Of a stretch of DNA of 64,000 nucleotides, positions 14,901 to 58,159 are shown piece by piece. Made by a program: the position numbers and the translations under genes. Within the stretch, counting starts at the first letter, position 1. Each line of letters begins with the position of its first letter. The notes beneath the pieces are model-generated. The model ran no database searches. It worked only from the letters and a program-made list of their open reading frames with translations, and was not told the origin of the DNA. The stretch is taken from assembly GCA_948567375.1 (NCBI GenBank), contig OX419762.1, forward strand, positions 32,369,465 to 32,433,464, written 5' to 3'. The stretch is from Lunularia cruciata. Taxonomy: Eukaryota; Streptophyta; Marchantiopsida; Lunulariales; Lunulariaceae.

Positions 14901-15107
14901 CTTCAATTGATGTTCAATTGACATGCAAATTTTGCATCTACTTTTTGTCATTCTCAATGTCATCTTGATCCCAAGGTATTTTTTTACTTCACACATACTT
15001 TCTTGATTGGCTAGACCCGAGGAAAAGTTGTTATAGGTCCTTTGGATGGGGTTGTGTATTCTGATGCAAATTCTCCTTACTTTAAATCCATACTTCCATA
15101 AGTCCAA
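11950..15107 (-). pseudogene. LTR-embedded ORF of family A (copy A2)
   Basis: Sense order: N-terminal part at 15107-14850; DWRLVLGREVGGVTFYRKYDF, compare DWRLVLGRELGEE in A3 (14482-14400); NEYKVNSYRDP and MMIAMFKSK (14380-14285); B solo LTR; TYVMMQKTLFFH (13955-13910); NWTKCLLQQ, then PPHYFVPFGAHFYFGQNLL and HFHPDLQQ (13899-13735); acidic region and zigzag of coiled-coil frames (13666-12400); VQVSLGELHETLE block and acidic C-terminus (12205-11950). Multiple stops and frame changes make it non-functional. The HFYFGQNLL block is the same motif seen in A3, A5 and family E. Confidence 0.7.
13963..14279 (-). mobile_element. family B solo LTR with internal deletion, inside A2
   Basis: Both ends match the B LTR: minus-sense start TGCAACACC (14279) and end GGCCCGCTCATA (13963), against TGTAACACC and GGCCGGCTCACA in the full copy at 54084-54773. 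It is 317 bp rather than about 690 bp: a block of about 370 bp is missing between ccatca and acacactag. No clean target duplication could be read (flanks agttc and tttaa on the plus strand). Confidence 0.75.
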
Positions 15108-15261
15108 CCCAAGTCCTTCAGACTCTGACCCAATGTTGACTTCTTTGGGACTATGCTAAACACATGATTTTTCTCTTTTCTTCTTCCTTATGCCTTAATA
15201 TAGCTTCAAAAATTCACCTCTTCTTTAAAACTTGTCAAAAATGAAAAATGTGTGTACCACA

Positions 15262-15949: not shown

Positions 15950-16903
15950 CATTCTTCGTCAAGGATGGTTTTAAATTCTATGCGTACCAAATTTATGGTC
16001 CAACCAAGGTAATCTACAACTTGTATGGCTTCAAGAGGCCCATGACTTACCAATCATTGGTCACATGGGTGTGGAAAATACTTTGGGTACCCTGCAATGT
16101 TAGTGGTGGTGGCCCAATGTAGTACCAGAGGTTCAAGAGTCTGTTTGATCTTGTAAGAGCTACTAATGCATCAAACCAAGAACCAAAAGCTGAGTGGACT
16201 CCTTCAACCACTACCAATTCCATCAACCCATTGGGAACATGTAAGCTTAGACCTCATCACATCCTTACCAAAGTCAAATTGGGGCAATAAAATGATTGTA
16301 ATGTTTGTTGATAAGCTCAACAAGTAGATTTGGCACCTACCATGGATACAAATGATGCTCCAACATTAGCCTAGATCTAGTTTAACAACATCTTCAAACA
16401 CCATGGGATGCCAAGGGTTCTCATTGTTTATCAAGATCCTTGCTTTATTGATACATTTTGGCAAGTGCTTTCTAAACTACTTGGTACCAAGCTTGTGTTG
16501 TCTATAGCTCATCGTCCTCAAATTGATAGACAAAAGAATGGGCAAACCACACTTTGGAGGAGATATTATGGACCTTTATCAATGTTCATCACATTACATA
16601 AGATACTTGTCTTGTAGCTGCCAAGTTTACCAATGATAATTCAAAGCAAGCAAGTCCTGGCTTTTCTCTTCTTTTCCTTAATTATGGGCAAGATCCACTT
16701 GTTCCAAATTCTCTTCTTGCTCCTTTTCCATCTTAGGTCCCACATACCTCCACCTTCTTGTTCATATTATCTAAATCCCTACACCAAGCCAAGTCTCATC
16801 TTCTTGTTGCTCAAAATTGGCAAAAACAATATGGTAATAAATCTCATTGTGATCTCAACTTTAAACTAAGTGATAAGGTCATGCTTTTTTCTAATAACCT
16901 TCT
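15950..16903 (+). pseudogene. C' integrase, N-terminal and core part
   Basis: Matches the integrase of C in order: the LQEAHDLPIIGHMGVE zinc-binding start near 16020, a broken CxxC, LTSLPKS near 16260, MFVDKLNK, IFKHHGMPRVL near 16400, LVLSIAHRPQIDRQKNGQT (the A-H-P-Q-T-D-G-Q block with D kept and T to I) and HFxLSDKVML near 16860. Stops interrupt it. A3 cuts it at 16903 and it resumes at 20694. Confidence 0.75.
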
Positions 16904-17276
16904 TATGGTACCCACATTTTTTTTGGGTTCTATTTTGAAGAAGAAGTGTACACATGAAGTCGTATTGAACCCAAATGGTGTAAAAAGAAGAAGAAATGTG
17001 TCTTTGGATTGAAACCCAAAGTAAATTGACAGACATGTCAAGACAGAAGTACATAGATTGGACCTGTCATAGAGAAATCCAAAGTAAGGAAACTTTGCCT
17101 CAGGGTGATCAACCCAATGCAAAGATGGTCTAACAAATTTCCTTCAACTTTGTCAATCAAGAAAGTACAAGTAAGAAAATGGCTAAGGCACAAACAGCTA
17201 AACTTGATAGTGCTAGAGGAAGAACTCTTGCAGAATGTGTGATTTTGGTGAAGAGTGACAAAGGAATGACCACAAA

Positions 17277-19889
17277 ATGAAGAACTATAAAATTGAGACT
17301 TTGTGGAGGGGGTTTGAAATGTCAAACAAGTATCCTAAGCCACTAAGTAGTCAACTCAAAGGAGTGCTTGTAGAGAAGCCATTTGATAATTTGATGTTTA
17401 ACAATCTTGAGGGAGTTAGGATCTTGAGACCAAGAGATAGTAGATTTATCATCCAACTACCACAAGTTAGAGATTGCATGATGCCAAAGAAGGGTGACAT
17501 GATAGCCAAGATTGAAGTTCTAAAAAGACTTCAGATCATGTTTCTGGCCTAAAATTGGAATTTGAGTTTTCTAGGGTTCATGGCAGAAGTAGCTTTGAGT
17601 GATTGTGAGGAGAGACTTGAGAATGAAAAGAAGAGAGGTTGATGGGCAGAGTCAGACTGGAGATTGGTTCTAGGGAGAGAGCTTGGTGAGGAAACTAGGG
17701 CCACATTCCTTGGGAAAGGAGAGTCTATGGAGGAGACTAAAGAAATCTTTAATTGCTTCATTGTGTTGCATACAAAGGACGGGTATAAGGTTGATACCTA
17801 TCGAGACCCGGCAAGGCAAAGTATTGTCCGGGCAATGATGGCACTTTTCAAGCCTGATCAAACCACATATGTGATGAAGCATCAAGTGGTGTTCTTCCAT
17901 CAGATGTTTCCAGGAGCGTTGATGAATTGGGCTCAGTGTTTTCACCAAAGAACATGGAAAATGGTGTGGCGTTGGAGAGATCAAATCGCTCCCCACTATT
18001 TGGTGCGATTTACTGCACATTTCTACTTTAGGTTGAACCTGATGAAGGAGGTAGAGCAAAGAAAGATGGGGTCTCACTTTCATCCGGATCTACAAAAAGA
18101 AACAAATGAGGAGGAGCATAGTACATCCAACATATTCAAAGTAGTGATGAGCACTATGCCAGAATGAGCCAACATATGAAGGAAGTAGTAAGTATCCCAA
18201 GACAAAGAAGAGAAGTCTCCTTGTGGAGATGGTATCACATATTTAGTCTCAAAAGATGAGAAAAGTGAATCCAATGCACAATGTTGTGGTAATCAATGAG
18301 TTATCAAGAGCAAAAGAGTCAAAAGGCAAAGCCAAGTATAAGTCAAAAGACTCGGGAGAAGAAGAAGAAGAAGAACCAGAGCTTATGCTGCAAAGTGAAG
18401 AGTCAAGCAGTGGAAGTGAGAACAAGATGGAAGTTCAGTAATAGGGACAAAATGATGCTAAAGATGAAGATCAAGAGTTTGATGCTGTGATTGACCGCAT
18501 GGGAGGTAGAGATAATTGCCGAGGACGGAGATAGAAGAAACTCAAGAAGTTGAGCAAAAGTTGGGGTTTCAAAAAGGTAGGAGAATCAAAGAGAAGTATG
18601 CCTACTGCCAATGTGGAAATGAGCAAAGCAAGCCCAATAGAGGAAGAAGGAGAAAGCTCAGATGAGATGCCACTAGAGTGAGGATATTGAGACTTTGGAG
18701 TAAAGCTCCAATAGAAGAAGTGAAGAGTGCAAATCCCAAAGAACCAAAGACTTGAGGAGTCTTTGATGGGGTAGAATACTTGTCAAAGATTGTTTGTCCA
18801 TTGTTGTTGCAGCTCAAGAAGAAGAGAGAAGAATTAAGAGGCAGTCAGGTAGAGTTTAAAGATGAATTAAAAGTAGTACAATACATGAGTGAAAGAAGTT
18901 TAGAGTTGAGAAAGAAGTAAATCCATGGAGAGAGGGAAGTAGAAGAACTTTGGAGTGAAGTATAGCTTAGGAGGAAGGAGATTGAGAGCTTGACTGAAGA
19001 TTTTGTAAGAGAGGCAAAGCAATGACAAACCAAGAAGAAGAAATAAGGGAGCAGATGGCAAAGACTGAGACCTTGAGGGCAGAAGAGCATGAAGCACGAG
19101 TGGAATTTCTTCATTTGAAGGATATGGCAGCAGTCATGGGACAAGAGTTGGAGAGCTTGAAGACAAGTGCAGCTGAGAAAGATCAAGCTTGGAAAAGAGA
19201 GTTAACTATGCAAAGTCATGAGAAGGAGAGATTGCGTGGTTGATCAGAGGAATGTAAGTGCAACTAAGGCAAAATCCAAAGGAGAAGTAAGCATTAAAGG
19301 CTGCATTGGAAGATGAGGTTAAGATGTATAGGGAGGAGTTGTAGGCAAAGAGAGAGAAGCTAAAGATACACCTAGGCCAGAGACAGCCAAGGAAGTAGTA
19401 GTGAGAGTGAAGGTGCTGCTGAGCACGGTATCAAAAGTTCAGTTGGAAGGGGCAAGATTGCATGAACTGAAATTGCTAGCGCAATAGACAAGGAAGAAGA
19501 AAGCAAAGGATGTACAATTGAATAAGTGATTGATTAGTGTGAGAGATGGAATAGATACGAAAATGTTAGAGGCAAGAGAGAATGTTTGTCTCAGATTAGA
19601 TGTAGCAAGAAAGGAGTTAGATGAGAATCTCAATCCAAAGAAGAATATTTGAGGCAAAGTAAGAGAGGTTGGGATGCAAGTTACTTGGGATGAGCTTTTT
19701 GAGACATTACAAAAGAGTGGGTTAGAAGATACATATGTAGATAGAATACCCATGAGTGCAATTGTAGTCCAGAGTGAAGAAATATTAGAATTAACAGAGG
19801 ATATAGTAGTATTAGATAGACCCAAAGAAGGGGAAATTATTGAAGGAGCATTGGGTTTGGAAGCCAAAGTTGAGGTGGATATTGGATAG
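17277..19889 (+). pseudogene. LTR-embedded ORF of family A (copy A3), best preserved N-terminal half
   Basis: N-terminal frame 17277-17552, then NWNLSFLGFMAE, then a 167-codon open frame (17664-18167) containing LGRELGEE, GYKVDTYRDPARQS, MMALFKPDQTTYVMKHQ, FFHQMFPG, NWAQCFHQRTW, PHYLVRFTAHFYFRLNLM and HFHPDL. An acidic linker (18256-18441), a heptad-rich region in broken frames (18780-19640) and a conserved C-terminus follow (VTWDELFETLQKSGLED, DRIPMSAIVVQ, ending KVEVDIG at 19889). Total about 870 codons. No signal peptide or membrane segment is evident, and I see no enzyme motif. The function is unknown. It lies where envelope-like ORFs sit in other plant gypsy elements, but inside U3. Confidence 0.75.
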
Positions 19890-20015
19890 GAGTAGTAATA
19901 ATTTTGAGATTTGAAGAGGCAGATATGAAGAGATGTATTGTCATTTTGGATCTATAGGTTAATAAAGTTGTTAGGAAATGGTGTTTTAGTTAGATAACTA
20001 TAAGAGTGCTTTGCC

Positions 20016-20024
20016 TATTTAAAG
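20016..20024 (+). promoter_or_regulatory. TATA-like box of LTR A3
   Basis: TATTTAAAG, 127 bp after the end of the ORF and about 665 bp before the LTR end. Its position downstream of the ORF places the ORF in U3. Confidence 0.6.
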
Positions 20025-20693
20025 GAAGCATCCACAATGTACCATTATTCAGTATTTATATTTTCAAAGTTGATATTCATAGTGAAGTGAAGTGTTGTAA
20101 TTCAGTGCTCATCATTTCAGCTTAATTCCAAGTATCAATCATGTGTATTTGTTTGGAGAAATTCAAAGTGCAAGTCAATGAACTTGTTGGATGTTGGATT
20201 CTATAGCACTAATCTTCATTTTGTTTGTTTTATCCTGAGTGAAGTGCAATAGAAGCAATGCCTTGATAGATCTGAGAGGAATTGTAGTGTTGGCAGTATT
20301 TTGCATTTGTGAGCATAGTGCGGGGTTGATGCAAAGCAATTTTGATCAAGGAATTTGTGCTTTCAGTGGAAGGGTGGAATAAAATTTTGAGGCAAAGCTA
20401 TTTTGTAGTGAAGTAGTCTTCTTTGAGAAAATCTAAATCATCACAATCAAGATTGTTTGGAAAGATTTGATGGAGTTGTGATTATGAAAGTGTTAATCAG
20501 TGAGGAGACTATGATCAGTGTTTGTTACTCTCTTCTGGGTGTGGTTTCTACTTGAGAGATTAAAGATGCAACAAAGAAGAACTACACTGTGATTGTTTTA
20601 CTTTGTATTTGACCACTTTTGACTCATATTTTTGTAGAACAAACTTTTACTTACTAATTACCATAAAAGTAATACTTTCCGGGTCACACCTTC

Positions 20694-28414: not shown

Positions 28415-28732
28415 AGATCAAATTGCCAAGTACCTTTAGGTAGAGATCATTTATTATGTATTGAATAGTGTGAGGGTTTCTCTTATTTGTGATTGTGCCA
28501 AAGAAGAAGAATAAGAAAATCTATGTATGTCAAGACTTCCAAAGGCTCACTGCAATCACAAAGAAGGATCATCACCCAATGCTATTTTTATAGACACCAT
28601 TTTAGACCAAGTGTCGGGACATGGGCACTACAACTTTTTAGATATATTTTTGAAGGTATAATCTAGTATCTATTTGTGAACAAAACAAAGACAAGACTAC
28701 CTTCACTACTAAATAGGGGACATATGCCTACT
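28415..28732 (+). pseudogene. family D RT, continued
   Basis: Continues the D frame beyond C with DQIAKYL, VLNSVRVSLI, CDCAKE, the degraded CVCQDFQRLT block, KKDHHPM, DTILDQVSGHGHYNFLDI and a KTTFTT-GTYAY block. The last codon is at 28730, directly before the E LTR end. The catalytic box and everything after it are missing, as E starts here. Confidence 0.75.
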
Positions 28733-31700
28733 ATAACAACCCAATTTCAACATATTAATAGTAAAATGGTAAGAACAAGTCAATCCCACAAAGGATATGG
28801 GGGAAATGGGTAGAAGCAAAGGGAAAGTGTGACAAGTTGTAGTTCATTTATTTTTTGCTGTTTAACCTCTTGGTCAAGAACCACTCCTAGTACAAGAGTA
28901 AAAGCACCCACTATAGTGCTTATAGTGCTTATAGTACAAAACCCAAAAGATCCTAAATCACTCTCTAATCTACTTGTAATCAAAGTTACCCTAAAGGTGA
29001 TGGTGCATTTTCCTCAAGCCTCCAACCTCAATAGCATGTTATACCCTTCTCCAAAGGCCCACCACCAAAGGGGCTTAACTAGCAACCAAATGTCCTTGAA
29101 TTTTTATCCCATGTTATTGATGGCACTAAGGACTGATCAAATCCATCATCTAGCCACCTTCCACATTTAGCTCCAATTGCCATCCCTTCCTCTAGGATTC
29201 AACAATTGCAATTCTTCAGCAAGATGCCCACCTCTATAATCAGATTGGACTTTGGTGTGATACAAAGTTGTATGGAAAAGTAGACTTGTTCAATAATAGG
29301 CCAAAGCCTTATGTATAGTTTCCTACTACTACTCCACTTTGCTCCAAAGGGTGTTGGATGGCTAAGCCAATTCCTTGCCAAACCTAATTACTCCATTGGC
29401 ACCAATTATGGTCTTCATTTCTCTCTTATCATCCTCTACCTACCTAATTAAGCTTCTGAAAAATATATGAGGGAAGGTGTCAATCCTTCTCTATGCATGC
29501 ACTACAAGTAATGCATGTCTACCTAAGCTACCACATCAAAGGATTATTCAGCAAAAAACTTGGCCAAATGGCATTCAACCCAAAAATTTTACCAAGCCAA
29601 AGCCTTTAATCTTGTTCTTAAATTAAATACAAAGAACTTCCACTACTAAGAGGCTGGGTTGGGAGTTCTTGCAAGTAACTATCAAATCATTTGTACAATT
29701 GTTGGAAAAGATGAGAGAATGTAAGCTTATCTAACATTATGGTTCCTTTTGGTACTTTGGCTATCTTTGGCTTCATGCTTTGGTGGGAAGAACATCCTTT
29801 GCCTTCAAATTGTCAAAGGACTTCTTTGGTGCACTATTGGTAGTCAACAATCTTCAATAGGTAAGAGTTGTGAAATTCATTGAAATTTTGATTGGCATGA
29901 CCTCAAAGTCAAGGAGAAAATTGGTCCATCTTCTCATCCTCATTTTTCCTCCCTTTCAGCTTCTCAACTTGAAACCTCAGTTCATAGATCTGGTAATTGT
30001 TAGCTCTCCCTTTGGCTTCTTCCTAAAGCATCTCCACAAACTGAGCGTAGACTTCTTTGAATGGTTGTGATTCCTCCTTCTTTGTCTCATGTATAAGCAT
30101 CTTGCTTAAAAGTCCAAGGTCTTGTGTAGGTGCTCTTGTTTGGCTTCCTTCTCCATTGCCACTACTAGTTCCTTTGCTCAGGCTTCCAATTGGGCTGCTA
30201 CCTCCTTCCAATACTTGAGCATCTGGAGATTCAAAGATGCATTGTTGACCTTGGTGTTGTTCAGCTCTTGGTGCAGGCTATACACCTCATTGTCTTGAAG
30301 CTGATCCTCATAGTTGAGTTCCTTCTCCTCCTTCTCCATCCAATCCTTTCCCAACTCCAGCTATACTTTGCCAAGTTTCTTCTCCTGACTTTAGTGAGCA
30401 GAAGCAAGAGAGGCCTTCTGCTTCTTCTCTTTGAACAACTCCTATACCAAGGAGTTCACCTTCTTTACTTCCTCCTTGAAGTGATCTAAGCTTTGGGTAT
30501 TTCCTCCTTGGATCTTGTTTCTTGGGCCTTCCTTGTGTAGATTTCCTTGTGCATCCTCTACACCAAGGTAGTATAATCTACAATCTCCCAACACTCCTAT
30601 TGGTATTGTGGCTGGAGGATTTCCATCAATAGCAAAACTGCCCCCACCAAATCAATAACAAAGTGGGCCTCTTCCAAAACTTGATTGGTGGTTCAACTTG
30701 ATCCATCCTCCTATTGAAAAATAAGGACTTTCAGTTTTTTTCAATTTGCATTTTAGTATTCTCTACCTAAACATCTCCCTCTTCTTCATGTTTGGCCTTG
30801 TCCTTGTCTTTGGGCCAAATGTTATCTTGAACTTTGGGCCAAATTTCCATTACTTCCTTTGAGTGCCTAACCTTCATCTCCAAAGATAGGGATTAGAGAG
30901 CGGGGTTGAGGGGTTTGGGTTTTGGTCTGGTTATCTCCTCTTGCACTTCATCTACCTTCTCTCTTTCATCTTCCACTTCTTTGGCCTCTTTCATCATTGG
31001 TGGTTTGTGGGCAGACTTTGCATCCTTATATTGTTCTTCTTCTTCATGGTCCTCCTCCTTAGTTTGTAGAGTGAAAGTACCTCCTTCCCCTTCCTCAGTC
31101 TCTTCCTCCAAAAAAACTTCTTCTTCTTATTTGGTATCAAAGGTCACTTTGATGACCAAAGGGTTCTTCTTTGCTTGCTTCTTGGTTGGTGTAGCGGCTC
31201 GGCTTGGCAGTGCTTGTTCCTACTTTGTCTTGGTAATCACCACATCTTTGCCAACAAGCACAAGTTTGCCTTTCTTGGCAAATTCCTCATTTGCTTCCTA
31301 ATATTTCTTGATCACCAACTTCCCCTTGAGCTAGGAAGCAAAATAATCTATAGCATGGTAGTGAATTGGAAAGCTCATGTGCTCCTCCTCATTTAGCAAA
31401 TTAAGACCTATGTAGAAATGAATAGCAAATGGGCTACGTTGGTGGCTCTTCTTTCCTCTAAGAAGTCTTGGTGAACATGCAAGCCCAATTTATAGGTTTT
31501 TTCTCATGCTCTTGTGGCAAAAGATGTCATGGGTATTTGTTGAGTAAGTTTTCCATTTGTGACATAATATTTTGAAAACTGCTTCTACAATTGGGTTGGG
31601 TTTTTATAGCTAAGAACTTGTCAATCATTGCTGTGGTTAAAAGGTTCTCCAAAGGTGTCCTTAATCTCTTGGATCAATTTCCAATCATAAAACTTGGTAT

Positions 31701-32700
31701 CAATCATCATTCCTCTTGATGGGCCTGCACCTAGACCAAGGAAATTCTTCCAGTGCTCCACTGTTTAGCCCATGGGGTTCCCTTTCATATCCCTTCTATT
31801 TGTCTCCTTTCTATTCATCATCTTATGGACGATTTCAAAATCTATTGCATCCCAATCCTTGAGCATAAAACTCATATCCTTGCATTGAATCACCTTTCTC
31901 CTATAATACACCACCCAAGCATTCAATGTTCGCTGTCAAAGGTGACTTTTCTATTCTATGCTAAGGAACAAAAGCAAAGGTTGGTACAACTTCAAAAGCT
32001 AGAAGTACAATAGCAAATGATCAAATTCAAGATCAGGTTGTGCTTAAACAATCACTTGTAAAGCAAAAAGTGGAAATGGCCATTCCCTACTTTATTTTAT
32101 AGGTAAAATGTTCAGTCAATCTTTAACCAAAAAGTGGTTGGGTTGTCCTTTTCCTTGTCACTCATTTAATGCTAAGTATTGCTTGCACATGCAAACCATC
32201 CCTTGCGCCAATAGTCTAGGTTCCAATCTATGCATTGGGCCAAATACCAAACATCCTTCTTAGAATTCAAACCAACCTTCTTGAATAGAAATAGCTATAT
32301 TGAATTGGTTGACGGTGGATTCAAATTGATGTATGGTGGTTGCCATGTGTTGGGTCTGAAAAGAAATGTAGTTGGAGCAAAATCATTTGGCTGAGTTTTG
32401 ATTGTCAACCAAAGTTCTTCTAGGCCAAATGCCATTCTATATGGAGATCTTTGGGCCAAAGTCCTCCCCCAAACCATTCATCTTTGAGCACCCTATGGTC
32501 CCAAGTTTTTTTCCTTTATTCTTCCCTCAGATTTTCCTCCAACCCTAGAACTATCATTTGGGTTAATAGGTTAGGAGGCACCACTCCAAAGAATGTTATA
32601 TCTATAATTTTTCCTATCAAAATTGTACAATAGGCTAGTACTTCCTTACAAACAAAGTTGAAATAAAAAAACCAATTAACACAAAAAGGTGGGCACAACA
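28732..32700 (-). repeat. family E 3' LTR, about 3.97 kb, containing an ORF
   Basis: In sense it starts TGTTGTGCCCACCTTTTT at 32700, resembling the A start TGTGGTACCCACATTTTT, and ends GGGTTGTTATA at 28732 (TG/CA terminus mutated). A polypurine tract abuts its start. 28732-31960 aligns with 38872-42850 across both the R-U5 part and the ORF, allowing for the replaced segment in the right copy. Confidence 0.8.
29900..31965 (-). pseudogene. LTR-embedded ORF of family E, 3' LTR copy
   Basis: Sense order: WKNFLGLGAGPSRGM near 31740, WKLIQEIKDTFGEPF near 31660, PFAIHFYIGLNLLNEEEH near 31400 (the A motif is PFAAHFYVGLNLLNVAKR), an acidic region at 31111-30893 (EEETEEGEGG, KPPMMKEAKEVEDE), then charged heptad-rich sequence to about 29900 (KELVVAMEKEA, QPFKEVYAQFVEML). 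Stops and frame changes throughout. The layout (globular part, acidic linker, coiled coil) matches family A, so the two are probably homologous. The function is unknown. Confidence 0.7.
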
Positions 32701-32715
32701 CATTCCTCCTCAAAT
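32701..32715 (-). other. polypurine tract of E
   Basis: TTTGAGGAGGAATG in sense ends directly at the LTR start TGTTGTG (32700). It fixes the LTR start upstream of the ORF. Confidence 0.7.
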
Positions 32716-32721
32716 GTGTAC

Positions 32722-32757
32722 ATCCACATGAACATAAGACCTTGTGTTCATGTGGAT
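32722..32757. repeat. 13-bp perfect inverted repeat before the E polypurine tract
   Basis: ATCCACATGAACA (32722-32734) and its exact complement (32745-32757) with a 10-base loop. It lies between the integrase end and the polypurine tract. Confidence 0.9.
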
Positions 32758-32829
32758 TAAGCTTTTGTTCAATTAGCTTTTGTTGGTTACTTGGAGTTAA
32801 GTGTGATATTTCCTTACTCACCATTCATT

Positions 32830-33960
32830 GACTTGGATAGCAAATATGTTACCTTTGAGTTTGGCTAGTTGTATGAAATTGTTATCATTAACTCTCTTTA
32901 TTTGGTATGGTCCCATCCACCTAAGATGTAGCTTCCTAGGAAACTGCTTGTGTAGATGGCCAGACAACAACACAAGTTCTACTTTTGACTATTTGCACTT
33001 GCTTGACCTTCTTGTTGTGATGCTCCTTCCTTTGTAATTGAGCAGCCTTGTTACATTTGTTGGAGTCATTCTGCTCCTCTTCCAAAAACATCAATTGTTG
33101 CAGTTGAGTACTTTGGCTTTCTTCTAACAACATCCTCAGCTCCAGTGAGATTTTGTAAGTTGGCACTTTGAATTCCACTAGAAGGATCAGGTGTAGACCA
33201 AAGATAAAAAAAAGTAGGGCATTTTTTTGGTAGGGATCTTTTCCATGGTATGGTAAGCCCATAAAGCTATCAGTAATTTTTTGTCCCAATCATAGGTATA
33301 GTTGATGGTTACCTTGTTTAGAATTTTGCATAGAAGTACATCCAGCTTCTTAGTCAAGTCATTTGCCTTTGGGTTGTAAGGAATGGTTTTTCAATGTTTG
33401 ATCTAAAAGTATTCAGTGAGGGATGCCACCAGGCCATTTAGGAAATGCACTCCCTTGTCACTCACTAGTTCAAGTGGACACCCATACCTTGAGATGATAT
33501 TTTAAAAGAAAAATTTGGCTATGGTATCAATGTCATCTTCATGGGTGGCTTTTGCTTCTACCATCTTTGCTGCATAGTTGGTGCAAACCAAGATGTATCT
33601 TTGGTGTGTTTCTTTTGTAGCAGGTTGTATCAGACCAACAATATCTATGCCCTATTTCTTGAATAGTGCCAAACATAGGATAGGTTTCAAGGGCCAATGC
33701 ATGTTGGGCATAGGTCTCCTTGTGCATTGACAAGCATCACACTTCTTGATCTAGTCATATACATCCTTGTAGATGGTTGGCCACCAAGAACCCATCATCA
33801 AATTTTTATTTTTATTTTATAAGTTAAAGTGTCCTCCTATGGCATCTCCATGCAAGGACTATATCAATGTATCACTCCTCCTATTTTTTGACTTTCCAAA
33901 CAACATTCCAAATTTTCATTTCCTCCTAGTTTGAACATATTTTTCCCCTTGAGTTGGTAG
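32830..33960 (-). pseudogene. family E integrase
   Basis: Sense order: a zinc-domain remnant (DACQCT near 33730), WGIDIVGLIQPA (core start, Asp kept), ILVCTNYAAKMVEAKAT, a second block SxYGCPLELVSD near 33480, then a C-terminal part KVPTYKISLELRMLLEE and EEQNDSNKCNKAAQLQRKEHHNKKVK (33180-33000) and GELVLLSG-type residues. It ends near IQLAKLKGNIFAIQ at 32840. No chromodomain was found. Stops are frequent. Confidence 0.75.
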
Positions 33961-34199
33961 GGACTCATTTTATGAGGAAACACCACTCTTTGTTTAGGGT
34001 TCATTACTTCAAAGATGGACATTGTTTGAAGGTACTGGTACTCCACCAAATAATGGGTCCTCTTTGCAATTGTAATGTAGAACGTGACTTTGTTTGGAAA
34101 GTCATCCACCAAATCCTTGTTGTCTTTGGTTTTGAGTCTGAGTTGTATGTTCTCACAATGTATTTCCTTCCAAACTTGCACAATGTACATGAATTCCTG

Positions 34200-35250
34200 C
34201 AAAAGTTAAATCCATTATGCAATTCTTTGTGATAAACCTACCTTGTTCACAGGGTATTGCATTGCATAGTGATCTATATGACAAAAAAATTCATAACCTA
34301 GCAAGTAGTGGTGAAACTTCTTGCAAGTATAAACCATTCCTAACCTAGCAAATTTGGTGAAACTTGTTGCAAGCATAAACCATTCCTAATGCTTCCCTCT
34401 TTGGAGTGGTAAACTTCCTCTTTGCCTCTAGAGCTTCCTACTTGCAAAGTATATTGGGTAGTCCTTTGTCCTATCATCTTTCTAACTAAGTACTACTCTT
34501 ATGGCTATGGATGAGGTGTCTATATACACATGGAAAGTCTTGTCCCAATGAGGGAGTGCATCATTAGAGTCTCTACTAAGATTTCTTTGGAGTGCTTGTT
34601 CTTGTGTCTTTGTTAATTGTATCCTTTGGCTTTCTTCAATAATTTGGTGAGGAGTGTGATAAGGATTGCATAGTTAGATATGAATTGTTTGTAATAACTC
34701 ACATGGCCCAAAAGGGCTCAAAGCTCTCTTGGGTTATTTGTGACTCTATAGCTTGGATCACCTTCATCTTCTTAGCATCCACTTCCACTCCTTGTCTTGA
34801 ATCTTGGTGACCAAGGAGAATTCCTTTGATCATTGCAATGAAACATTTCTTTGGGTATAGCAATAATCCTATTGCTCTACACCTTTCAAATTTCATCTTC
34901 AAAAAAAAATGATCAATTCTTTGTCCAAATAAATAGAAGTCATTAATGAAGATTTCCATGGACTTTTACAAGTAGTCCTTGATGATGGTGGTTGTCATTT
35001 GCTAGAATGTAGCAAGAATGCATTTCATAGGCCAAATGCATTTGGTTATGAGCAAAGATACCTAAGTTGGTGGTAAAGGTTTTCTTGTCCATATCTTCTT
35101 CTTGAATAGAGACTTGGTTATATCTCAAAAAGCCATCTAGGAGCTCATATCCTACAACTTGGTCCAGGATAGTATCACTGAATATCAATGGATGATAATC
35201 CTTCCTTATAGCAACATTTAGATTGCAAGAACCTTGGCAAACTCAGATCC
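34200..35250 (-). pseudogene. family E reverse transcriptase and RNase H
   Basis: Sense order: DTILDQVVGYELLDGF and YNQVSIQEEDMDKKTFTT (35180-35080), IFINDFYLFGQR with the active site FIND at 34939-34950 (first catalytic Asp changed to Asn), GILLGHQDS near 34815, KVIQAIESQ, then RNase H blocks VYIDTSSIAI and LGMVYTCKKFHHYLLGYEFFCHIDHYA (34340-34250). A 46-bp tandem duplication lies at 34294-34386. It is inactive by both active-site change and stops. Confidence 0.75.
34294..34386. repeat. 46-47 bp tandem duplication in the E RNase H
   Basis: taacctagcaagtagtggtg at 34294 recurs at 34341 as taacctagcaaatttggtg. Both copies end in ataaaccattcc. Confidence 0.85.
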
Positions 35251-35879
35251 TTATCTTCTTCTTTGGTACAATTACAATTGGAGAGACTCATTTGCTACTG
35301 AGTACCAAAAAAATGATACCAACCCAAAGATACTTATCAATTTCCTCCTTCATTAGCACTAAGCACTTTAGGTTTAGCCTGTTTTGTCAATGCCTTCTTC
35401 TAGATCAATGTAGTGCTCTCCTAATTGATGCTAAATACCAAGCATATACTCAATTTTCCAAGCAAAGATGTCTTGGTATTCTCACAATAGAAGTCTATAC
35501 TAGTCAAGTTCCTTTTAGATACCTCTAATATTCTTCCTGTAGCCATGCTTACTTCTTGGCAATCATCAAGGTTAACAATCCCTTCTACATGACTCACATG
35601 GCTTGTCTCAAGCAATGTTGGGTTTTCTAATCCTTTGTCTGAGTAGGTGCTATCTTTGGCTTCATCCTCAATTTTGTAACATTCCAAGTAGTTGACTTCA
35701 TCCTCTTCTTTTGAAAGGATATTAGGATCATCCATTGTGTTGTTAATTTATCCTTTGTATGATGACATTGTCTCTTCTAGGTGGAGAACCTTCTTCTAGC
35801 AAACCGTGACAATCATATGGTTGGTGACAATCATATGCTTAGATATATCCATGACCTTAGGATCTAGGGATCTAAGCAT

Positions 35880-36230
35880 ATGCTCATGCCAATCTAGATT
35901 GACTTGAGCACGATAAAACCAAGGTCTTCTAATAAGTGTAGAACACCCAGTCTTGGTTACAAGCTAGAGAATGATGTAGTCTAGGATAAATTCCATGCCT
36001 CTTATGGTGGTCCAAACCTTGGATAACATTACTAGGAGCCTCTTGCAAGTTTGGTTGGTGAAAATAGGATTTGCAAAGTAGGCTTCAATGGCATATACTC
36101 CAACTTTAGCATGGTCTCCTCAATCATTACATTGACACCTAATCCTAAATCTAGTGGGATAGACTAGGTCATAGAACCATTGATCTCTATTTCCACCTGA
36201 GGAGATCACAAGTTTTCAAGATCAATTCAA
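35880..36230 (-). pseudogene. family E aspartic protease
   Basis: Sense reading MEVDINGSMTxxIPLDLGLGVNVMIEETMLKLEYMPLKPTLQ. The active site is Asp-Leu-Gly, like the D protease IDLGSSINVM. The shared NVM and the following ExM block suggest D and E are sister lineages. Between it and RT (35250-35880) only broken frames are seen, including an acidic stretch at 35735-35421. Confidence 0.6.
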
Positions 36231-36679
36231 CACACCGCAAGTAGGTTTGGCATTTTGTGGTCTAAGTTCTATGGAGTGCTATGAGTAACTATTGTTTGTA
36301 TAGCTTGTTATCCTCCCAGAATTGTTTAAAAGTTAGGTCTACTTTGGAGAAAGCTAGGTAAGCCATCATATCATACTCAATAACTCCCAAGATGGTACTG
36401 GCCTTCTTATTCTTCTTTTCTTTTTAGGCCTTCTTTGCTATTTTGCTTCTAGGCAAAAGGCTGTAAAAGTTTGGATGGGTTTGTCATTTGGCTTCTTGTC
36501 TGCATTTGTTTCCCATTAAAGTGGGGTGAACTTGGGGCCTTCTTCTCAATATATGTATGGGGTGTAGAATGGTCTTGATTTCCACTGATCTCCTCCTCCA
36601 AGAGTTTTTGTAGCTTGTTATGGATGTCAACTTGAAAGTTGGAAGTAGAGCCTTGAAGTGGAGTACTTTGAATAATGGT

Positions 36680-38330
36680 CCTTAGTGCAAGTGGGTCAGC
36701 ATTTGTGGTCGGTTAGGTGCCTCTCTTTGAGTATTAAACTCACTATCTTTGTACTTTACCTTCTCCAAAAACTTCAGTTTGGGTTTGTAAAACTCCTCAT
36801 GAGGACAAACCATCCTTTGTTGGGTCTTGCCGGAATCAAAGGAATCCAAGGAAGAAGAGCCATTTGCCTTTGTGTGATTTGAGTGAGTAACCATTTGGTT
36901 AATTTCCAAATCTGGCTATCCTCCTTTGTCTTACATTGGAGCTTTGTTAGAAATTGTCTCTTCTAAGTTTACATAGTGAACATTTGCATCCACCTTACTT
37001 GGGGTGGAATAGAGACAAACCTGACCAATGGTTAGAGTGCCAAAGGTTGGGGGCAATTTGATTGCATATGTTATGGGGCTTTAAAATTACCACACCACAA
37101 TGCATAGGGGTATGGTATTCTAGATTCCAAACAACTTGAAACTTAGTGTTAAATGGCTCCACAATTACCTCTCCAAGTGGCACATATTGGGGAATAGTGA
37201 AAGAAGGACAAGAGATTGGGCTGGTAGTTACTTCTTGCATTGCAATGACTTGATCTTCCTCCTCCACATGATATTCAGGCTTTTTCCCTTCAGGTGCCTA
37301 TTCCATTTGATGTACCAAGGAAGAGGGACGGTTAGAAAAACATTCCAATATAAAATGTTCCAGCATCCCACAAGTGGTGCACCGAATGTTGGGTCATACT
37401 TACAATGGGATCTTCTCCTCTCTTTAGCTCTGACCAGATGAACCTTAAATTCAGCAAGTCCTTGATGAGCTCTTCTAACTTAGTTCCTAGCTCTCAAGTG
37501 CTCTTTGGAGTTGGCTTGGTTTGAGGTCGACAAACTTTCTTCTTCTCCTTATGGTAATTTTTCTCATCTTTTGACAAAGATCACTCTAAAGGAATTGTAG
37601 CATATGACTCTAACAAAGAAGAAGGTGGCCATTGAGTTACCCTCTTGCTTGATTTGGCCTGGTTTCACTTTTCTTGTGGGATTTATCTAGGAAGATTTGT
37701 ACATTGATTTGATCACCTAGTTCAATTTTTCATGGTCAAACTCATTAGCCAAAATGCAAAATTTAGCAAGGATTCCTCTTGGGAACCCCGCTACTAATTG
37801 AGCATCCAGGTATCCTAAGGTGGCACCACAAGTGTGTATTCATTCCAACAAACTTTATAACCATTTGGTGTAATCTCACATTTGAATTTCTTTCTTCCTT
37901 GCCAGACTATTGAGGGTAGCAAAGACATTTGACTCATAGTCTAGTTCTCAAAAGCATTCCAAGAACTTACTTCTTATAGTCAACCAACCTTTGATGTTGG
38001 TAGGGTTTTGACTGGCATATGTGTACCTGTCCATGGCTCTTTTTCTTAGCAAACTTGGGAAAATCCAAAGTTGGTCCCCATTGGCATCTTCTTTATTCAC
38101 TACCATGATGGTCTTGAATTTCTTGATGAGGTATTTTGGTCTTTGTCCTCATCCTTCCCCTTGAATTTTTGCTAACTTTGTTGAGTGAAGGGGGTATGGT
38201 TTGCCATTCTGGTAGAAATGAAGCCAAACTAAGATGAATGTTTACTCTCTTAGGCAAGTAATAGAACAATCTAGGAATATACCAAGAATTCCTTCTCCAT
38301 GTTTGACAAGGAATGTATTATGCTGGAGTG
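36680..38330 (-). pseudogene. family E gag with intact-looking zinc knuckle
   Basis: The capsid-type domain (38330-37600) is readable only as short blocks. The zinc knuckle CTTCGMLEHFILEC at 37340-37381 is a perfect CX2CX4HX4C. A long, proline- and charge-rich region follows (37267-36995 and 36909-36682). Stops are frequent. The zinc knuckle would bind the genomic RNA. Confidence 0.65.
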
Positions 38331-38844
38331 GATTTCTTTGGCTTTGTCTAAACTATGAATTGTAAGCTAAACCTCTAATAGAATACCAAATTTTAAATAT
38401 TTGGTGGTAGTCCTTGGGGCATCCACAACAAAGGTCCTCCCACGGTATGCACACCAGGTTGAACTTCACATTGGGAATATTTTGCAAGCTTGCCCTAGGA
38501 TCTTCTCCAAAGTTCCTCCTCTTGTCCAAGGCACAATCTTCCTTAGTGCCTTTGAATTCTTTGACACAAAAAATTTGAATTTTTATTGATTGTATAGACA
38601 CATTCTTGATTCCAATGTCACCTTCCTACAAGATTAGTTGCTGAAGGTTCAGTTCTATGTCTACTGCTATTTTTCTCCCAAGATGACAAAAGTATTCTTG
38701 AGCTTTTCCTCATTTGACTAAGCTCTTCTGATTTCTCTAGTAAGGTCACTGGTCACAAGGCATCTGAGCATCCCCTGGTCCTGAATTCCCCAACCACATT
38801 CATCATTTTTCCTAATTTCACTTTGGGCCCCTCTGAGGAATTTA

Positions 38845-38862
38845 TTTCCGGCAATGGCACTA
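38845..38862 (-). other. primer-binding site of E (Asp tRNA type)
   Basis: TAGTGCCATTGCCGGAAA in sense, 9 bases after the 5' LTR. It differs from TGGCGCCGTTGCCGGGGA, the complement of the plant Asp-tRNA 3' end, at five places, all C to T or G to A. Confidence 0.75.
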
Positions 38863-39870
38863 AAAAGTACATGTAACAACCTAGTGTCAACATATTGATA
38901 GGAAAGTGGGAAGAACAAGTTGATCCTACAAGGATACTGCTTGGAAATGGATAAAAAAGAGGGAAAGTGTCACAAGTTGCAATTTTTTTATTATTTGTTG
39001 TTTAGTCTCTTTGGTAGGAACCACTTCCAATGTAGAGGTAAAGGTACCTACTACAACACTTTATGGAAAACTAAAAGGATCCTAAATCACTCTCAAATCT
39101 ACTTGTAACCAAAGTTATTTTGAAGGTGATGGTGCATTTCACCCCAAAGCCACCAACCTTGATAGCATATTCTACCTTTCCCTCAAGGCATGCCATAAAA
39201 GGAGCTTAACAAGCAAGAAAATTTCCCTAAGTTTCAATTTTGTGTTATTGATGGCACTTAGGACTTATCAAATTGATCATCAAGCCACCCTCCACATTCA
39301 AACTCCAATTGCTAACCCTTCCTCGTGGATTCAAAAATTACAATCCTTTAGCAAGATTCACACCTCTACACTAGCAAGGGCATTTGAAGCCAGACATTAG
39401 GTGAATATAAATGGATCCGATTGGACTTTGGTGTGATCCAAAATTGTATGGAAAAGTGGATTGTTCATTATCAAGCCAAAGCCTTATGTATGGCCTTATG
39501 TAAATACTACTTCTACTCCACTTCATCCCAAAGGGTTTAAGATGGCTAAGCAGGTTCCATGCCAAACGTAACTACTCCACCAATTATGGTCTTAATTTCT
39601 CTCTTATCATACTCTAACTACCTAATTAAGTTTTTGAAAAATGTATGAAAGAAAGTTTGAATCCTTACTCAATGCATGCATTCCAAGTTATGAATGTTTA
39701 TGTATGCTATGGCACCAAAGGGTTCTTTGGTTGGAAACTTGGCTGAATGACATTTGCCCCCAAAATTATACCAGCCCAAAGCCTTTGGTCTTGTTCCAAA
39801 ATTCCAAACTTACAAAGAATATCCACTTCTAAAAAGATAGGTTGGAAGTTCTTGCAAGTAATAAATAGAG

Positions 39871-39878
39871 CTTATATA
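39871..39878 (-). promoter_or_regulatory. TATA box of the E 5' LTR
   Basis: TATATAAG in sense, between the ORF end (about 40100) and the LTR end. The 3' LTR copy has lost it. Confidence 0.55.
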
Positions 39879-40099
39879 CACTTGCTAGAAAAGATGAAGA
39901 ATGTAAGCTAATCTAAAAATATAATTTCTCTTGGTACTCTGGCTATCTTTGGCTTCATGTTGTGTTGGGAAGAACATCCTTTGCCTTTCAATTGTCAAAG
40001 GACTTCTCTGGTGCACTCTCAATAGTCAACAAAGGTAAGAGTTTTGCACCTCATTGAACTTCCCATCAGGCTAACCCCAAAGCCAAAGAGCAAGCTGGT

Positions 40100-42800
40100 C
40101 CATCTTCTATTCCTTGTATGTCCTCCTTTCTTCTATACTTGAAACCTCAGTTGATGGATCTTGGAATTTGTGGCTTTCTGTTCATCTTCTTCCTAGAGCA
40201 TCTCCATGGATTAAGCAAGGACTTCTTCCAAATGTTGTTGTTCCCCCTCCTTCATTTCAATCTGCAAACATCATGCAAAAATTTGTCATCCAAGGTCTTG
40301 TGTAGGTGCTCTTGTATAGCTTCCTTCTCCATTGCCATTGCTAATTCCTTTACTTAGGTTTCCAATTGAGCTGTGACCTCCTTCAAATACTCAAGCATAT
40401 AGAGATCTAAAGTTTCATTCTTGACCTTGGTATCATTCAACTCTTGGTGAAAGCTATGCACATCCTCATCTTGAGCTTGGAGTTGATCTTCATAATTGAT
40501 CTCCATCTCCTTCTTCTCCATCCTCAACTTTCCTAAATCCAGCTATACTTTGCCCAATTACTTCTCTTGACTTTGGTGCACGGAGGCAAGAGAGGTCTTT
40601 TGCTTCTATTCTTTGAACAACTCCTATACCAAGGAGTTCACCTTTGCTTCCTCCTTGAAGTGATCTTAGCTTAGAGTAACTTCTTCTTGGAGTTTGATGT
40701 CTTGGGCCTTCCTTATGTAGATTTTGTTGTGCATCCTTTGCACCAAGGTATTATAATCTATTACCTTTGGACACTCATGTTGGTATTGTGGTAGTAGGAG
40801 TTCCATCAATTGTAGAGTTGCCCCCACCAAATAAATAACAAGAGCTCCTTCCAAACCTTGGTTGGTGGTATTTTTTCTTGATCCTTCCTCCTTTTCTTGT
40901 GAGACATGGACTTTTTCTTCTTTATCAATTTGCACTAGAGTGTCCTCTGCCTTAAAGTCAACTTCTTCTTCATGTTCAACCTCCAAAGATGGGGATTGAG
41001 GGGTCAAGTTTGAGTATGGTTATCTCCTCCTACACTCCATCTACCTCTTCTCCTCCATCTTCTACTTCTTTGGCCTCTTCCATCATTGGTATACCTCCAA
41101 AGGCAACATAGTTTCATGCACAGTAGTGTACTACAAGGTCTTAGTCCAAATATATCATTGGCTAGGATGGAATGATGTGAAGGAAGAAAGTGCCTTCAAC
41201 TCTTTTGGTTTGGAAGTCAAGAACACTATCTTTGTATATTTGGTCCAACAAGCTAACATGTGGGGTTGTGGACTTGGAAGGACCCTAGAGTTAGCTCATA
41301 GGGATAGGTTCATTGATGTATGGGATTCAAGCTTTTGGGACTAACAAGAGAGAGATCATATGGAGATCATATGCCTTCTATCATATGAGGTCCCATTTTC
41401 TTTGCTTGTGCTAACAAAGGGAAGAAGAAAAGGTATCAACTTACTTAGAGTGCAAGGTCTTAAGAGAGACCTATGTTGTGGAGCAAAGTGCAAGAATCCT
41501 TTAGCAAGAACCCATAGGCAAGAATTCATATGCTAGAAATCCCAACTTAAGATTGTAATTAAGAACCAATAGTACACTATCAGGTTGTTTAGGATTATCC
41601 AAGGAAAACATGTAACAGAGGGGATATAAGTAGCATGAAGACAAGTCACATTGAAGCCGGTTGCTGCCTACTATAATTTATGATTATGAGTAAAATTTAT
41701 GATAGGGTTAGCCTAGGTATTTAAGAGAGATAGAACTTCATAGTAAGGGCTGGCTTTTGTCTTGAAGGTCCTAGAGGTTGGCCTTTCCCACCTATGGGAA
41801 TAGAGTAATAAGAGACTACAAGAGTGACTATAAAAAGCCAAACACACCCCTGTCATACAGTCCCGGGGCCTTAATGAAGGATTAATGCAACAGCTGGTAA
41901 GCCGTTACGTGCCCTTCTCCTTCATTTGGACTTAACCACTATACCCTGGATGTTGTATTAGGATTGGTAGTAGAGAAGGCTCAAGCTATTGAAAGACAAT
42001 AAAAGGGAAATTCAATCTTACTATTGGAAATGGGTGGCTGAATGTATAAAAATGCTTGAGTCAATACAATTTTGTTCATGGCATAGTACTCTTTGCTCCT
42101 TCTCACACTATTGTCTTGATTAATTGGGAAGACAATAAGTGATATATATCAATATATCACTATATCAATTGGTTATTCAGAGATTGGGTGACATACTACA
42201 AAAGGCCAAAGGGTTCATGGGGGTGATAGACCCTTGAACCATCTTCAAGATAAGTGTCTACTGGAACTTCCTATGCCCAATGAGACACACCCAAGTATGG
42301 GATTTTGGACTATCACCTCTCCCCAAGCCAAATCAAAGGCTGGCCATGTATAAGACTATGTAAGTTACCTTTCTTACTTCCCATAGCCCATTGTCCCTCA
42401 ACTGTGGGACTGGTTTTTTGCACATGACATCCCCCAAAAGTGTCCTTAATCTCTTGGGTCAACTCTCGCTAATAAAACTTGATATCAGTCATCATTCATG
42501 CTAATGGGCTTGCATCTAGACCAAGGACATTCTTCCATTTCTCATTTGTCCAACCCATGAGGTTCTCTCTCATATCTCCAGTATTCTTCTCCTTTCTACT
42601 CATCATCTCATTGATAATTTCAAAATCTGTAGTGTCCCAATCCCAAGGTATGAAATTCATATGCTTGATATGAGCCAACTCTCTTCTATAGTACACCACC
42701 CTAGCATTCACTACTAGGCTTTGGAGAGCAGCTCTAAGGGCCTTCATCATGGGTTCTGAAAAGAAATCTATTCTATCACGTGCTAATGAACAAAGGCAAA
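40100..42800 (-). pseudogene. LTR-embedded ORF of family E, 5' LTR copy, interrupted
   Basis: 42800-42430 matches 31965-31650 (N-terminal part). 41095-40100 matches 31010-29900 (acidic region and coiled coil, e.g. EVEHEEEVDFKAEDT near 40980 and MELLLPQYQHECPKV near 40790). The middle, which includes the HFYIGLNLL motif in the other LTR, is absent and replaced by 1.33 kb of other DNA. Stops and frame changes occur in both parts. Confidence 0.65.
41095..42425. other. unidentified 1.33-kb segment replacing part of the E 5' LTR ORF
   Basis: It has no counterpart in the other E LTR or elsewhere in the window. It contains a 72-codon plus-strand frame (41126-41344) without known motifs, TATA-like sequence near 42047 (tgtataaaaat) followed by tcaatacaattttgttc, and a short palindrome gtgatatat...atatatcac at 42139-42160. 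The promoter-like part could belong to a solo LTR of another family, but I cannot define its ends. Confidence 0.4.
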
Positions 42801-42889
42801 GGTTGGTTTGGCTACAAACACTACAAAAGAACAACAACAAATGATAATAGTAGAATATTGACAATATAGCAGTAAAATACCAACAGTAA

Positions 42890-54785: not shown

Positions 54786-55605
54786 CTAAGTTTTCACTTG
54801 TCCTCAAAGTGAAGGTCTCTCTACCTTTTATGATACATTTTCAACTTATCATGGTTAATCCTATCAAAGTGTCTTCCTCCCAACTCCTTGAGATCAAAGG
54901 TGTAATTGCCCCACACCTTCTCCACTATGAAAGGTCCAAAGTATTTAGGCAAAAACTTCTTTTGCACTCTCCTGAATCAAATAGAATCAAACAACATTAC
55001 TCAATCACCTTTCTTTGAAAGGCTCTACCTTCTTCTTGCCTTGCCTCTTGTCATAGCTCTCCTTTTGTTTCCTTTGGGCTTGCTCCACTCGAACCATAGC
55101 AACTGCTCTTGCCTCTTCCAACTCCATGAGTTGATCCTACTTTGACTTCTGTGCATCACCTCCTTGTGCTTTCTTCAATCTCCTATGAATGCTTTGGAAG
55201 GTAGGAAGATCAAAGTGAATAGGTAAGGTAGGCTCAATACCATATACCAATTGAAATGAAGAATATCCGGTGTAAGTCTTCATGGTTGTCCTATAATCCC
55301 ACAAAATTGCATGAATCCTCTTGTCCCAATGATTTTTAGCCCCCCCCCTCCCTCCATTTCTGCATCTTTGGCCAACATCATGCACAAGGTCTGATTGGTT
55401 CTCTTTGCCAAGCCATTGGATTTTGGCTTATAGGATGTAGTTACTCTATGTGTGATAGAGAAATGTTGTAGCATGGCTATAGTGATGTTTCCTATCAAAT
55501 ATCCTCCTCTATCAGAAGCCAACTCCAAAGGGCATCCAAACCTAGTTATAATGCTTTCATAAAGAATCTACCCACTTCATCTTCATTCTTGTTCCTCAAT
55601 GGTCT
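54786..55605 (-). pseudogene. family B integrase, C-terminal half
   Basis: Sense order: MELASDRGGYLIGNITIAMLQHFSITHRVTTSYKPKSNGLAKRTNQTLCMMLA (55528-55370; D and the P-x-x-N-G-L-A block in place), NHWDKRIHAILWDYRTTMKT, FQLVYGIEPTLPIHFDLPTFQSI (55385-55137), KKKVEPFKE, then KYFGPFIVEKVWGNYTFDLKELGGRHFDRINHDKLKMY (54970-54820). It has no chromodomain. Two frame breaks occur, one at a run of C at 55341-55348. Confidence 0.85.
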
Positions 55606-55973
55606 TGTGGTACCCACATTTTTGTTTTTTCTTATTTTTGGAAGAAGTGTACAAATGAAGTCATATTGTGCCCATATGGCATCATAAGGCAAAGAATGGT
55701 GTCTTTGGGTTGTAACCCAAGGTAAAGTGACTTTGTGTCAAAGGACAAAGTACTCAGATTGGTCCTATCAATATTCAACCTGAAGTAAGGAGACTTTGGC
55801 TTGGAGGTGCTCAACCCGAGGCAAAGATAGCATAACAACTTTCCTTGGGGGTTGAACATTCAAGAAGGTACCACACAAAAAAAAACAGCTGGCCCACGGG
55901 CGGGGGAAAATTGACAGTGATAGGAGCATGCAGGAGGTGTGATTTCTTGGTAGAAAACTTTAAGTGAAGAAAG

Positions 55974-58148: not shown

Positions 58149-58159
58149 AAAAAGGAAAG

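What the first reader, a model, noticed from the sequence alone, without database searches (positions are those of the whole stretch)
28732..42860. Gypsy family E carries a coiled-coil ORF inside both LTRs (U3)
Seen: the ORF-bearing region 29900-31965 recurs at 40100-42800. A primer-binding site (38845-38862) abuts the inner end of the right repeat, and a polypurine tract (32701-32715) abuts the start of the left repeat upstream of the ORF. Those two sites define an LTR of about 3.97 kb that includes the ORF. The TATA box lies after the ORF, so the ORF is in U3. Known: a coding U3 is rare; mouse mammary tumour virus sag and the foamy virus accessory genes are the usual examples. Inferred: each reverse transcription cycle would duplicate the ORF, which could act in trans in transposition or regulation.
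Basis: partly seen in the sequence, partly recalled or inferred. Interest (0 to 1): 0.87.

Follow-up and report, generated by a model that had tools for sequence, protein, structure and literature searches.

The report
Retrotransposon with gene inside its LTR
A large, old family of Gypsy retrotransposons in this genome, probably a plant, carries a conserved protein gene of about 860 codons inside its terminal repeats, so a full-length copy holds two of these genes and even a leftover single repeat keeps one.

Summary
The core of the finding holds. E lies on the minus strand. A tRNA-Asp-like PBS follows the right (5') LTR; a polypurine tract precedes the left (3') LTR, which runs 32700-28732 (3.97 kb) and spans the ORF region. 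In both E copies the ORF is broken. Sister LTRs in this window (A1-A4) and elsewhere in the genome carry a homologous ORF. Two are solo LTRs whose empty sites are seen in a paralogous element (A2, A3). A C10 element has the ORF at both LTR positions. Of nine A-type LTRs, two keep a frame of about 860 codons with 6 and 7 stops against 61-64 expected. Between insertions the ORF shows codon-position bias (40 of 40 ordered comparisons, p<=0.001; dN/dS 0.16-0.43), the tail almost none. So the ORF evolved as a protein gene. Not supported: "TATA after the ORF, hence U3". A TATA there is in 2 of 10 E rows. A TATA before the ORF recurs in 3 of 3 E and 10 of 11 A copies, but very close to the ATG in A, so placement in R/U5 is favoured, not shown. 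"Coiled coil" is only suggested. Function is unknown.

The parts
28732..32700 (-). 3' LTR of element E (3.97 kb), whole
   Evidence: aligned to the right repeat and to other E copies; PPT directly before it
38872..42860 (-). 5' LTR of element E; first ~0.68 kb missing, 41091-42433 not homologous to the left copy
29900..31943 (-). remnant of the LTR ORF in the 3' LTR, broken by stops and frameshifts
40100..42752 (-). remnant of the LTR ORF in the 5' LTR, ATG at about 42750; interrupted by 41091-42433
38844..38862 (-). PBS, tRNA-Asp-like (14 of 19 against the recalled sequence)
32701..32715 (-). polypurine tract
32095..32101 (-). TATA-like box before the ORF, shared by 3 of 3 E copies that keep this part
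34946..35242 (-). reverse transcriptase piece of E
   Evidence: BLASTP to two RT frames of the window
34191..34598 (-). RNase H domains of E
   Evidence: Pfam
33370..33873 (-). integrase H2C2 and core (core below Pfam's cut-off)
   Evidence: Pfam
11160..15260 (-). A2, solo LTR of the sister family with the ORF; empty site in a paralogous element at 25645-25649
16901..20687 (+). A3, solo LTR of the sister family with the ORF; empty site in a paralogous element at 23626-23629
4926..7708 (-). A1, LTR of the sister family, ORF and tail; start not found
55603..61412 (+). A4, 5' LTR of the sister family, interrupted at about 55946-58220
58201..60640 (+). LTR ORF of A4 in pieces; 58902-59813 is an open frame of 304 aa
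61420..61438 (+). PBS after A4, tRNA-Asp-like (15 of 19)

Best explanation
E and its sister family A are Ty3/Gypsy retrotransposons with a tRNA-Asp-like primer site whose 3.8-4.0 kb LTR carries a protein gene. LTR order: a short 5' part (about 0.4 kb in A, 0.6 kb in E) ending near a TATA-like box; an ATG and a sense ORF of about 860 codons in A (about 2 kb of LTR in E) with a conserved N-terminal domain and a highly charged C-terminal half; then a non-coding tail of about 0.8-1.1 kb that ends at the PBS. Shown: the ORF is inside the LTR, is carried by solo LTRs and found at both LTR positions of one element, and was under purifying selection between insertions. Inferred: the TATA before the ORF belongs to the LTR promoter, so the ORF lies in R/U5 near the head of the element RNA rather than in U3; each LTR, solo ones included, was once an expression unit; the protein acts in trans as an accessory or regulatory factor of transposition. 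All copies read here are decayed.
For: Empty sites of two solo LTRs that contain the ORF; PBS after E-R and A4, PPT before E-L and L044; second E element whose 5' LTR starts at the base matching 32700; C10 element with ORF starts 10.18 kb apart on one strand and a PBS-bearing tail beside the upstream one, the two being sisters in a six-sequence tree, support 0.97; C8 3' LTR of 3786 bp by coordinates with the ORF start inside; 6 and 7 stops against 61 and 64 expected in L043 and L029; codon-position bias in 40 of 40 ordered A-type comparisons, 12 of 12 among A1-A4, five of seven E loci against E-R; tails almost flat; TATA before the ORF in 3 of 3 E and 10 of 11 A copies and ATG in 11 of 11 A copies.
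Against: No transcript or protein evidence. In A the TATA-like box is only 27-34 nt before the shared ATG, which leaves almost no leader, and in part of the copies the frame stays open through the box. The three E copies with the TATA come from two elements. E-L and E-R do not decay quite evenly (dN/dS 0.24-0.46 against 0.55-0.67 in the tail; p 0.02-0.79 over six tests). A4, a separate insertion, is as close to the C10 5' LTR as the C10 3' LTR is, with equally even codon positions. Tail dN/dS by the same method is 0.33-0.71, so dN/dS alone is not decisive. L004/L005 have an E tail without an alignable ORF. 5-mer repeats at LTR ends: 6 of 9 against 15 of 72 in the control.
Confidence: 0.72

Rival explanations
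1. One reading: the ORF lies in U3 with the promoter after it, so it is read from the 3' LTR at the end of the genomic RNA or from another promoter, as MMTV sag is (recalled).
For: PPT lies directly before the LTR start and upstream of the ORF. TATATA after the ORF in E-R and L008. The tail after the ORF is the best conserved non-coding part between subfamilies. The short TATA-ATG distance in A speaks against the box before the ORF as the start for this ORF.
Against: The TATA after the ORF is in 2 of 10 E rows and 0 of 9 A copies (TATAWAW); no TATA-like site other than the one before the ORF is shared by 3 or more of 11 A copies.
Confidence: 0.3
2. The ORF is a passenger: a gene kept for its own sake or for the host, which rides in the LTR and gives the element nothing.
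For: No relation to known retroelement proteins was found; solo LTRs keep it.
Against: Two sister families with different ORF sequences keep it at the same place in the LTR, and first-look candidates run to 18109, which fits a gene of the element better.
Confidence: 0.1
3. E-L and E-R are not the two LTRs of one insertion but copies brought together by recombination between elements of one burst.
For: E tails form a star 19-25% apart, and E-L and E-R are not sisters in that tree; some codon bias remains between them (p 0.02 in one of six tests); no target duplication can be tested because the right LTR is cut.
Against: E-L is the nearest of the nine other rows to E-R (20.8%); PBS, pol and PPT lie in order at the normal spacing.
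Confidence: 0.15
4. There is no gene: a purine-rich strand gives the look of a charged coiled-coil ORF.
For: The E copies are full of stops; strand skew is strong; reverse frames also have fewer stops than expected (17-48); heptad periodicity is weak.
Against: Frame openness of 6-7 stops in about 867 codons and codon-position bias between copies.
Confidence: 0.01

Closest known systems
Plant non-chromovirus Ty3/Gypsy elements (Athila, Tat, Ogre, Retand, Grande, RIRE2) with extra ORFs
   Same: Gypsy pol, tRNA-Asp-type PBS among the known types of this group, very long LTRs (up to about 5 kb) and extra ORFs without clear relatives (PMC6317226, passages and section 13; PMC7264820, parts 1 and 2 of 3).
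   Different: There the extra ORFs are described in the internal region, between LTR and gag or between pol and the 3' LTR; here the ORF lies inside the LTR. No match to PMD, Transposase_28 or Athila ORF-1 Pfam models was listed.
Mouse mammary tumour virus sag; foamy virus accessory genes (recalled; for MMTV a search listing only)
   Same: A protein gene lies in the LTR and is doubled by reverse transcription.
   Different: Those lie in U3; here a TATA-like box before the ORF favours R/U5. No sequence relation was found. Those are vertebrate retroviruses.
Gymny of pine (PMC2633040, passages)
   Same: Athila-related Gypsy family with very many copies.
   Different: Only a portion of a putative 5' LTR was obtained, and its numbered ORFs are placed after the LTR.

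Membership tests
Ty3/Gypsy LTR retrotransposon | order RT - RNase H - integrase | tested here: met
   RT 35242-34946 (BLASTP), RNase H 34598-34191, H2C2/core 33873-33370, in this order on the minus strand; Pfam RVT_1 itself gave no hit
Ty3/Gypsy LTR retrotransposon | direct LTRs with PBS after the 5' LTR and PPT before the 3' LTR | tested here: met
Ty3/Gypsy LTR retrotransposon | target-site duplication | tested here: inconclusive
   E: right LTR cut, not testable. A-type: repeated 5-mer in 6 of 9 copies, control 15 of 72; empty sites of A2 and A3
Plant OTA group (Athila/Tat) | non-Met PBS such as tRNA-Asp | tested here: met
   14 and 15 of 19 matches against a recalled sequence; group feature from PMC6317226
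Plant OTA group (Athila/Tat) | place in an RT-RH-INT tree | not tested
   no reference set was at hand
Tat clade | additional RNase H domain | tested here: inconclusive
   none listed in nine frame translations, but the element is badly decayed
Internal extra ORF of plant Gypsy elements | ORF between the LTRs | tested here: not met
   ORF inside the LTR
MMTV sag-like coding U3 | ORF upstream of the LTR promoter, in U3 | tested here: inconclusive
   shared TATA lies before the ORF; no transcript data

The most novel reading that the evidence does not exclude
The ORF is the first gene on the element RNA and lies in R/U5, so every LTR is a promoter-plus-gene unit. Solo LTRs, very many of them, would then have been stand-alone genes for a trans-acting retroelement protein (helper or repressor), and the R-U5 strong-stop DNA would be over 3 kb. 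LTR-LTR recombination would remove gag-pol but keep this gene on its own.
Probability: 0.35. Interest if true: 0.9.

Novelty: new variant of a known kind. Interest (0 to 1): 0.76.

Why it matters
The reviews seen place accessory genes of plant LTR retrotransposons in the internal region. A conserved gene inside the LTR means that reverse transcription doubles the gene at each insertion, and that solo-LTR formation, usually seen as removal of the element, keeps the gene. Annotation that treats LTRs as non-coding would miss such copies. It makes a clear question testable: do solo LTRs supply, or titrate, a factor needed by full-length elements?

Tried and rejected
Rejected: (a) ORF in U3 as the leading model, kept as a rival. 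(b) dN/dS on the E pair alone: LTRs of one insertion should decay neutrally, so between-insertion tests were used. (c) Stops shared by E-L and E-R as proof that the ORF was dead at insertion: other E copies have glutamine codons at several of these places and some have stops there too, so repeated cytosine decay is an alternative (CpG o/e 0.05-0.07). (d) Fold of the N-terminal domain: pLDDT 41, pTM 0.26, so no fold search was made. The second job (C-terminal part) had not finished at the last look. (e) Homologues: protein collection, solved structures, Pfam, Rfam: none of note. One search was a poor query (55 aa), as only proteins of similar length are candidates. The viral-contig scan could not use the alignment. 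(f) One search had five of seven loci in the wrong orientation; one search replaces it and drops L050 as the same LTR as L002. (g) fetched the wrong flanks of the C6 element; the right ones. (h) Literature: nine answered searches showed no plant LTR-encoded ORF among the listed papers; the library holds open-licence papers only.

Full report
Observation. Self-comparison gives direct repeats 28734-32021 and 38874-42845 in three blocks of 71-83% identity. The element lies on the minus strand. The right repeat ends at 38872 and is followed by a PBS-like site at 38862; the left repeat starts at 32700 directly after a purine tract. Scanning the whole window, both strands, with the recalled tRNA-Asp PBS gives two sites with 14 or more of 19 matches: this one, and one directly after the LTR end of another element, A4. 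RNase H and integrase domains and an RT piece lie in order on the minus strand between the repeats. The 3.97-kb LTR is seen whole only on the left. The right copy lacks the first ~0.68 kb and carries a 1.34-kb segment not homologous to the left one, so its similar length is coincidence. In E the ORF is broken: no stop-to-stop frame of 150 aa lies in the element. CpG o/e is 0.05-0.07 and CWG o/e 0.39-0.44 in the element, the mark of long methylation decay.

The ORF is in the LTR. A translated piece of E's ORF matched an open 304-aa frame at 58902-59813 and a frame at 13567-13944 over 30 residues each (E 2.6e-6 and 2.3e-4). These belong to copies of a sister LTR family, A1-A4. A2 (11160-15260) and A3 (16901-20687) interrupt one pol element at places where a second copy of that pol element is uninterrupted. 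They are single insertions of about 4.1 and 3.8 kb, without internal region or PBS, that contain the ORF: solo LTRs. A4 is followed by a PBS. In six 28-kb stretches fetched around other ORF copies, seven more LTRs align end to end with A3 at 3.68-3.80 kb; one of them, L044, is preceded by a PPT-like tract. Of nine A-type LTRs, six have a repeated 5-mer at their ends in a lenient search, against 15 of 72 mismatched pairs, so the two empty sites are the stronger proof.

Paired LTRs. For E, a second element on contig C6 has a 5' LTR that starts at the base matching 32700 and ends at a PBS; part of its ORF is deleted, and its 3' LTR is cut at the start. On C10, ORF starts lie 10.18 kb apart on one strand and a PBS-bearing tail lies beside the upstream one, as in a full-length A element; the far ends of its LTRs were not read. 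The two ORF pieces are 88% identical over the main block, sisters in a tree of six sequences (support 0.97), and differ evenly over codon positions (0.113, 0.095, 0.124; p=0.37). A4, a separate insertion, is about as close to them (0.111 and 0.135) and as even (p 0.76 and 0.84), so evenness marks a recent common source and not one insertion alone. On C8 a PBS-bearing tail and a second tail lie 9969 bp apart; the 3' LTR measures 3786 bp from coordinates and holds the ORF start 441 bp inside. The ORF of the C8 5' LTR was not among the 40 listed hits. First-look candidates number 18109 for the ORF protein (130 scored), 10722 for the tail (40), 7818 for the ORF start (40) and 4339 for the first 343 bp (40), so the copy number is large but not counted.

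The ORF evolved as a protein gene. In nine A-type LTRs the best forward frame over LTR positions 350-2950 has 6 (L043), 7 (L029), 16, 19, 24, 25, 34, 42 and 48 stops against 61-68 expected from composition; reverse frames have 17-48. The two lowest counts are in the two copies with the most CpG (0.52 and 0.47). For 40 ordered comparisons (30 distinct pairs, not independent) of five reference copies with the eight others, differences fall unevenly on codon positions (p<=0.001, lowest 4e-25). NG86 dN/dS is 0.16-0.43 in the 38 where it could be computed (two saturated), against 0.57-1.16 in shifted frames. The tails show p>=0.1 in 38 of 40 (the others 0.02 and 0.05). Tail dN/dS by the same method is 0.33-0.71 and in three comparisons about equals the ORF value, so the codon-position test carries the weight. 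A1-A4 agree: 12 of 12 ordered comparisons with p 0.015 to 5e-10, dN/dS 0.19-0.37 against 0.62-1.16 in shifted frames, tails p 0.16-0.92.

For E, seven other loci compared with E-R give p 0.0001-0.02 in five; in L004/L005, a near-identical pair, the ORF does not align (p 0.6). With E-L as reference, five of the seven have p<=0.05 apart from L007 (0.1), counting L004/L005 (0.05) once. Pooled p is 3e-11 and 5e-12; the tails give pooled p 0.04 and 0.06 without a third-position excess. E-L against E-R gives p 0.79 and 0.059, 0.2 and 0.59, 0.2 and 0.02, with dN/dS 0.24-0.46 against 0.55-0.67 in the tail: compatible with neutral decay but not clean. Apart from L004/L005, E tails are 19-25% apart and form a star in which E-L and E-R are not sisters, though E-L is the nearest row to E-R, as an old burst would give.

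Where the promoter is. Before the ORF, TATAAAA stands in 3 of 3 E copies that keep this part (two elements; E-L at 32101, LTR position 600), and a TATA-like box in 10 of 11 A copies at LTR position about 376, followed by an ATG in the same column in 11 of 11. No other TATA-like site is shared by 3 or more of 11 A copies. In A the distance from box to ATG is only 27-34 nt, which leaves almost no leader, and in part of the copies the frame stays open through the box. So this is evidence, not proof. If it is right, the ORF lies near the head of the element RNA, in R/U5.

The protein. There is no Pfam match of note, none in the protein collection or among solved structures. A conserved N-terminal domain is followed by a charged half (42-43% D/E/K/R, 3-5% P/G in four long pieces). 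Heptad periodicity is only weakly above shuffles (35-97 of 500 shuffles reach it), so 'coiled coil' is a suggestion. The N-terminal model has pLDDT 41 and says nothing about the fold; the model of the C-terminal part was not finished.

Reading. An accessory or regulatory protein encoded by the LTR itself is the most likely role, because selection acted on it between insertions. Which step it serves is unknown. The literature seen (PMC6317226 passages and section 13; PMC7264820 parts 1 and 2 of 3; PMC11963269, PMC8775202 and PMC2633040 passages) places plant extra ORFs in the internal region. The viral comparison (MMTV sag, foamy viruses) is recalled, with a search listing for MMTV. That the genome is a plant's is an inference from the element type and the CHG depletion; the record is unnamed.

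Noticed in passing
L043 against L029, L032, L035, L044: Between subfamilies the ORF differs more, even at second codon positions (0.36-0.40), than the non-coding tail (about 0.2). The tail may be constrained, or ORFs may be swapped between LTRs by recombination.
   Followed up: no
L004 and L005 (C6, about 22.6 kb apart): Two copies 99.9% identical in the E tail, with sequence before the tail that does not align to E's ORF: a segmental duplicate of an E LTR with another or no ORF.
   Followed up: no
window 42911-43214: A fragment of an A-family LTR lies directly beside the cut end of E's right LTR.
   Followed up: partly
window 41091-42433: A 1.34-kb segment in E's right LTR has no counterpart in the left LTR; its origin was not traced.
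   Followed up: no
window 61412-63401: After A4's PBS the pol frames run on the opposite strand (RNase H-like 62651-61776, RT-like 63401-62988), so A4's internal region seems replaced or invaded.
   Followed up: no
window 23535-24083: The pol element that hosts the two solo LTRs has a Tf2-1-like SH3 match (1.3e-6, just below Pfam's cut-off) after integrase, so it may be of another, chromovirus-like lineage.
   Followed up: no
window 28118-28412 and 22825-23194: A short tandem repeat of about 60 bp beside E's left LTR recurs at 88-95% identity 5 kb away.
   Followed up: no
whole window: CpG o/e is 0.04-0.29 and CWG o/e 0.34-0.71 over 8-kb windows: strong loss of both, as after long CG and CHG methylation.
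   Followed up: partly
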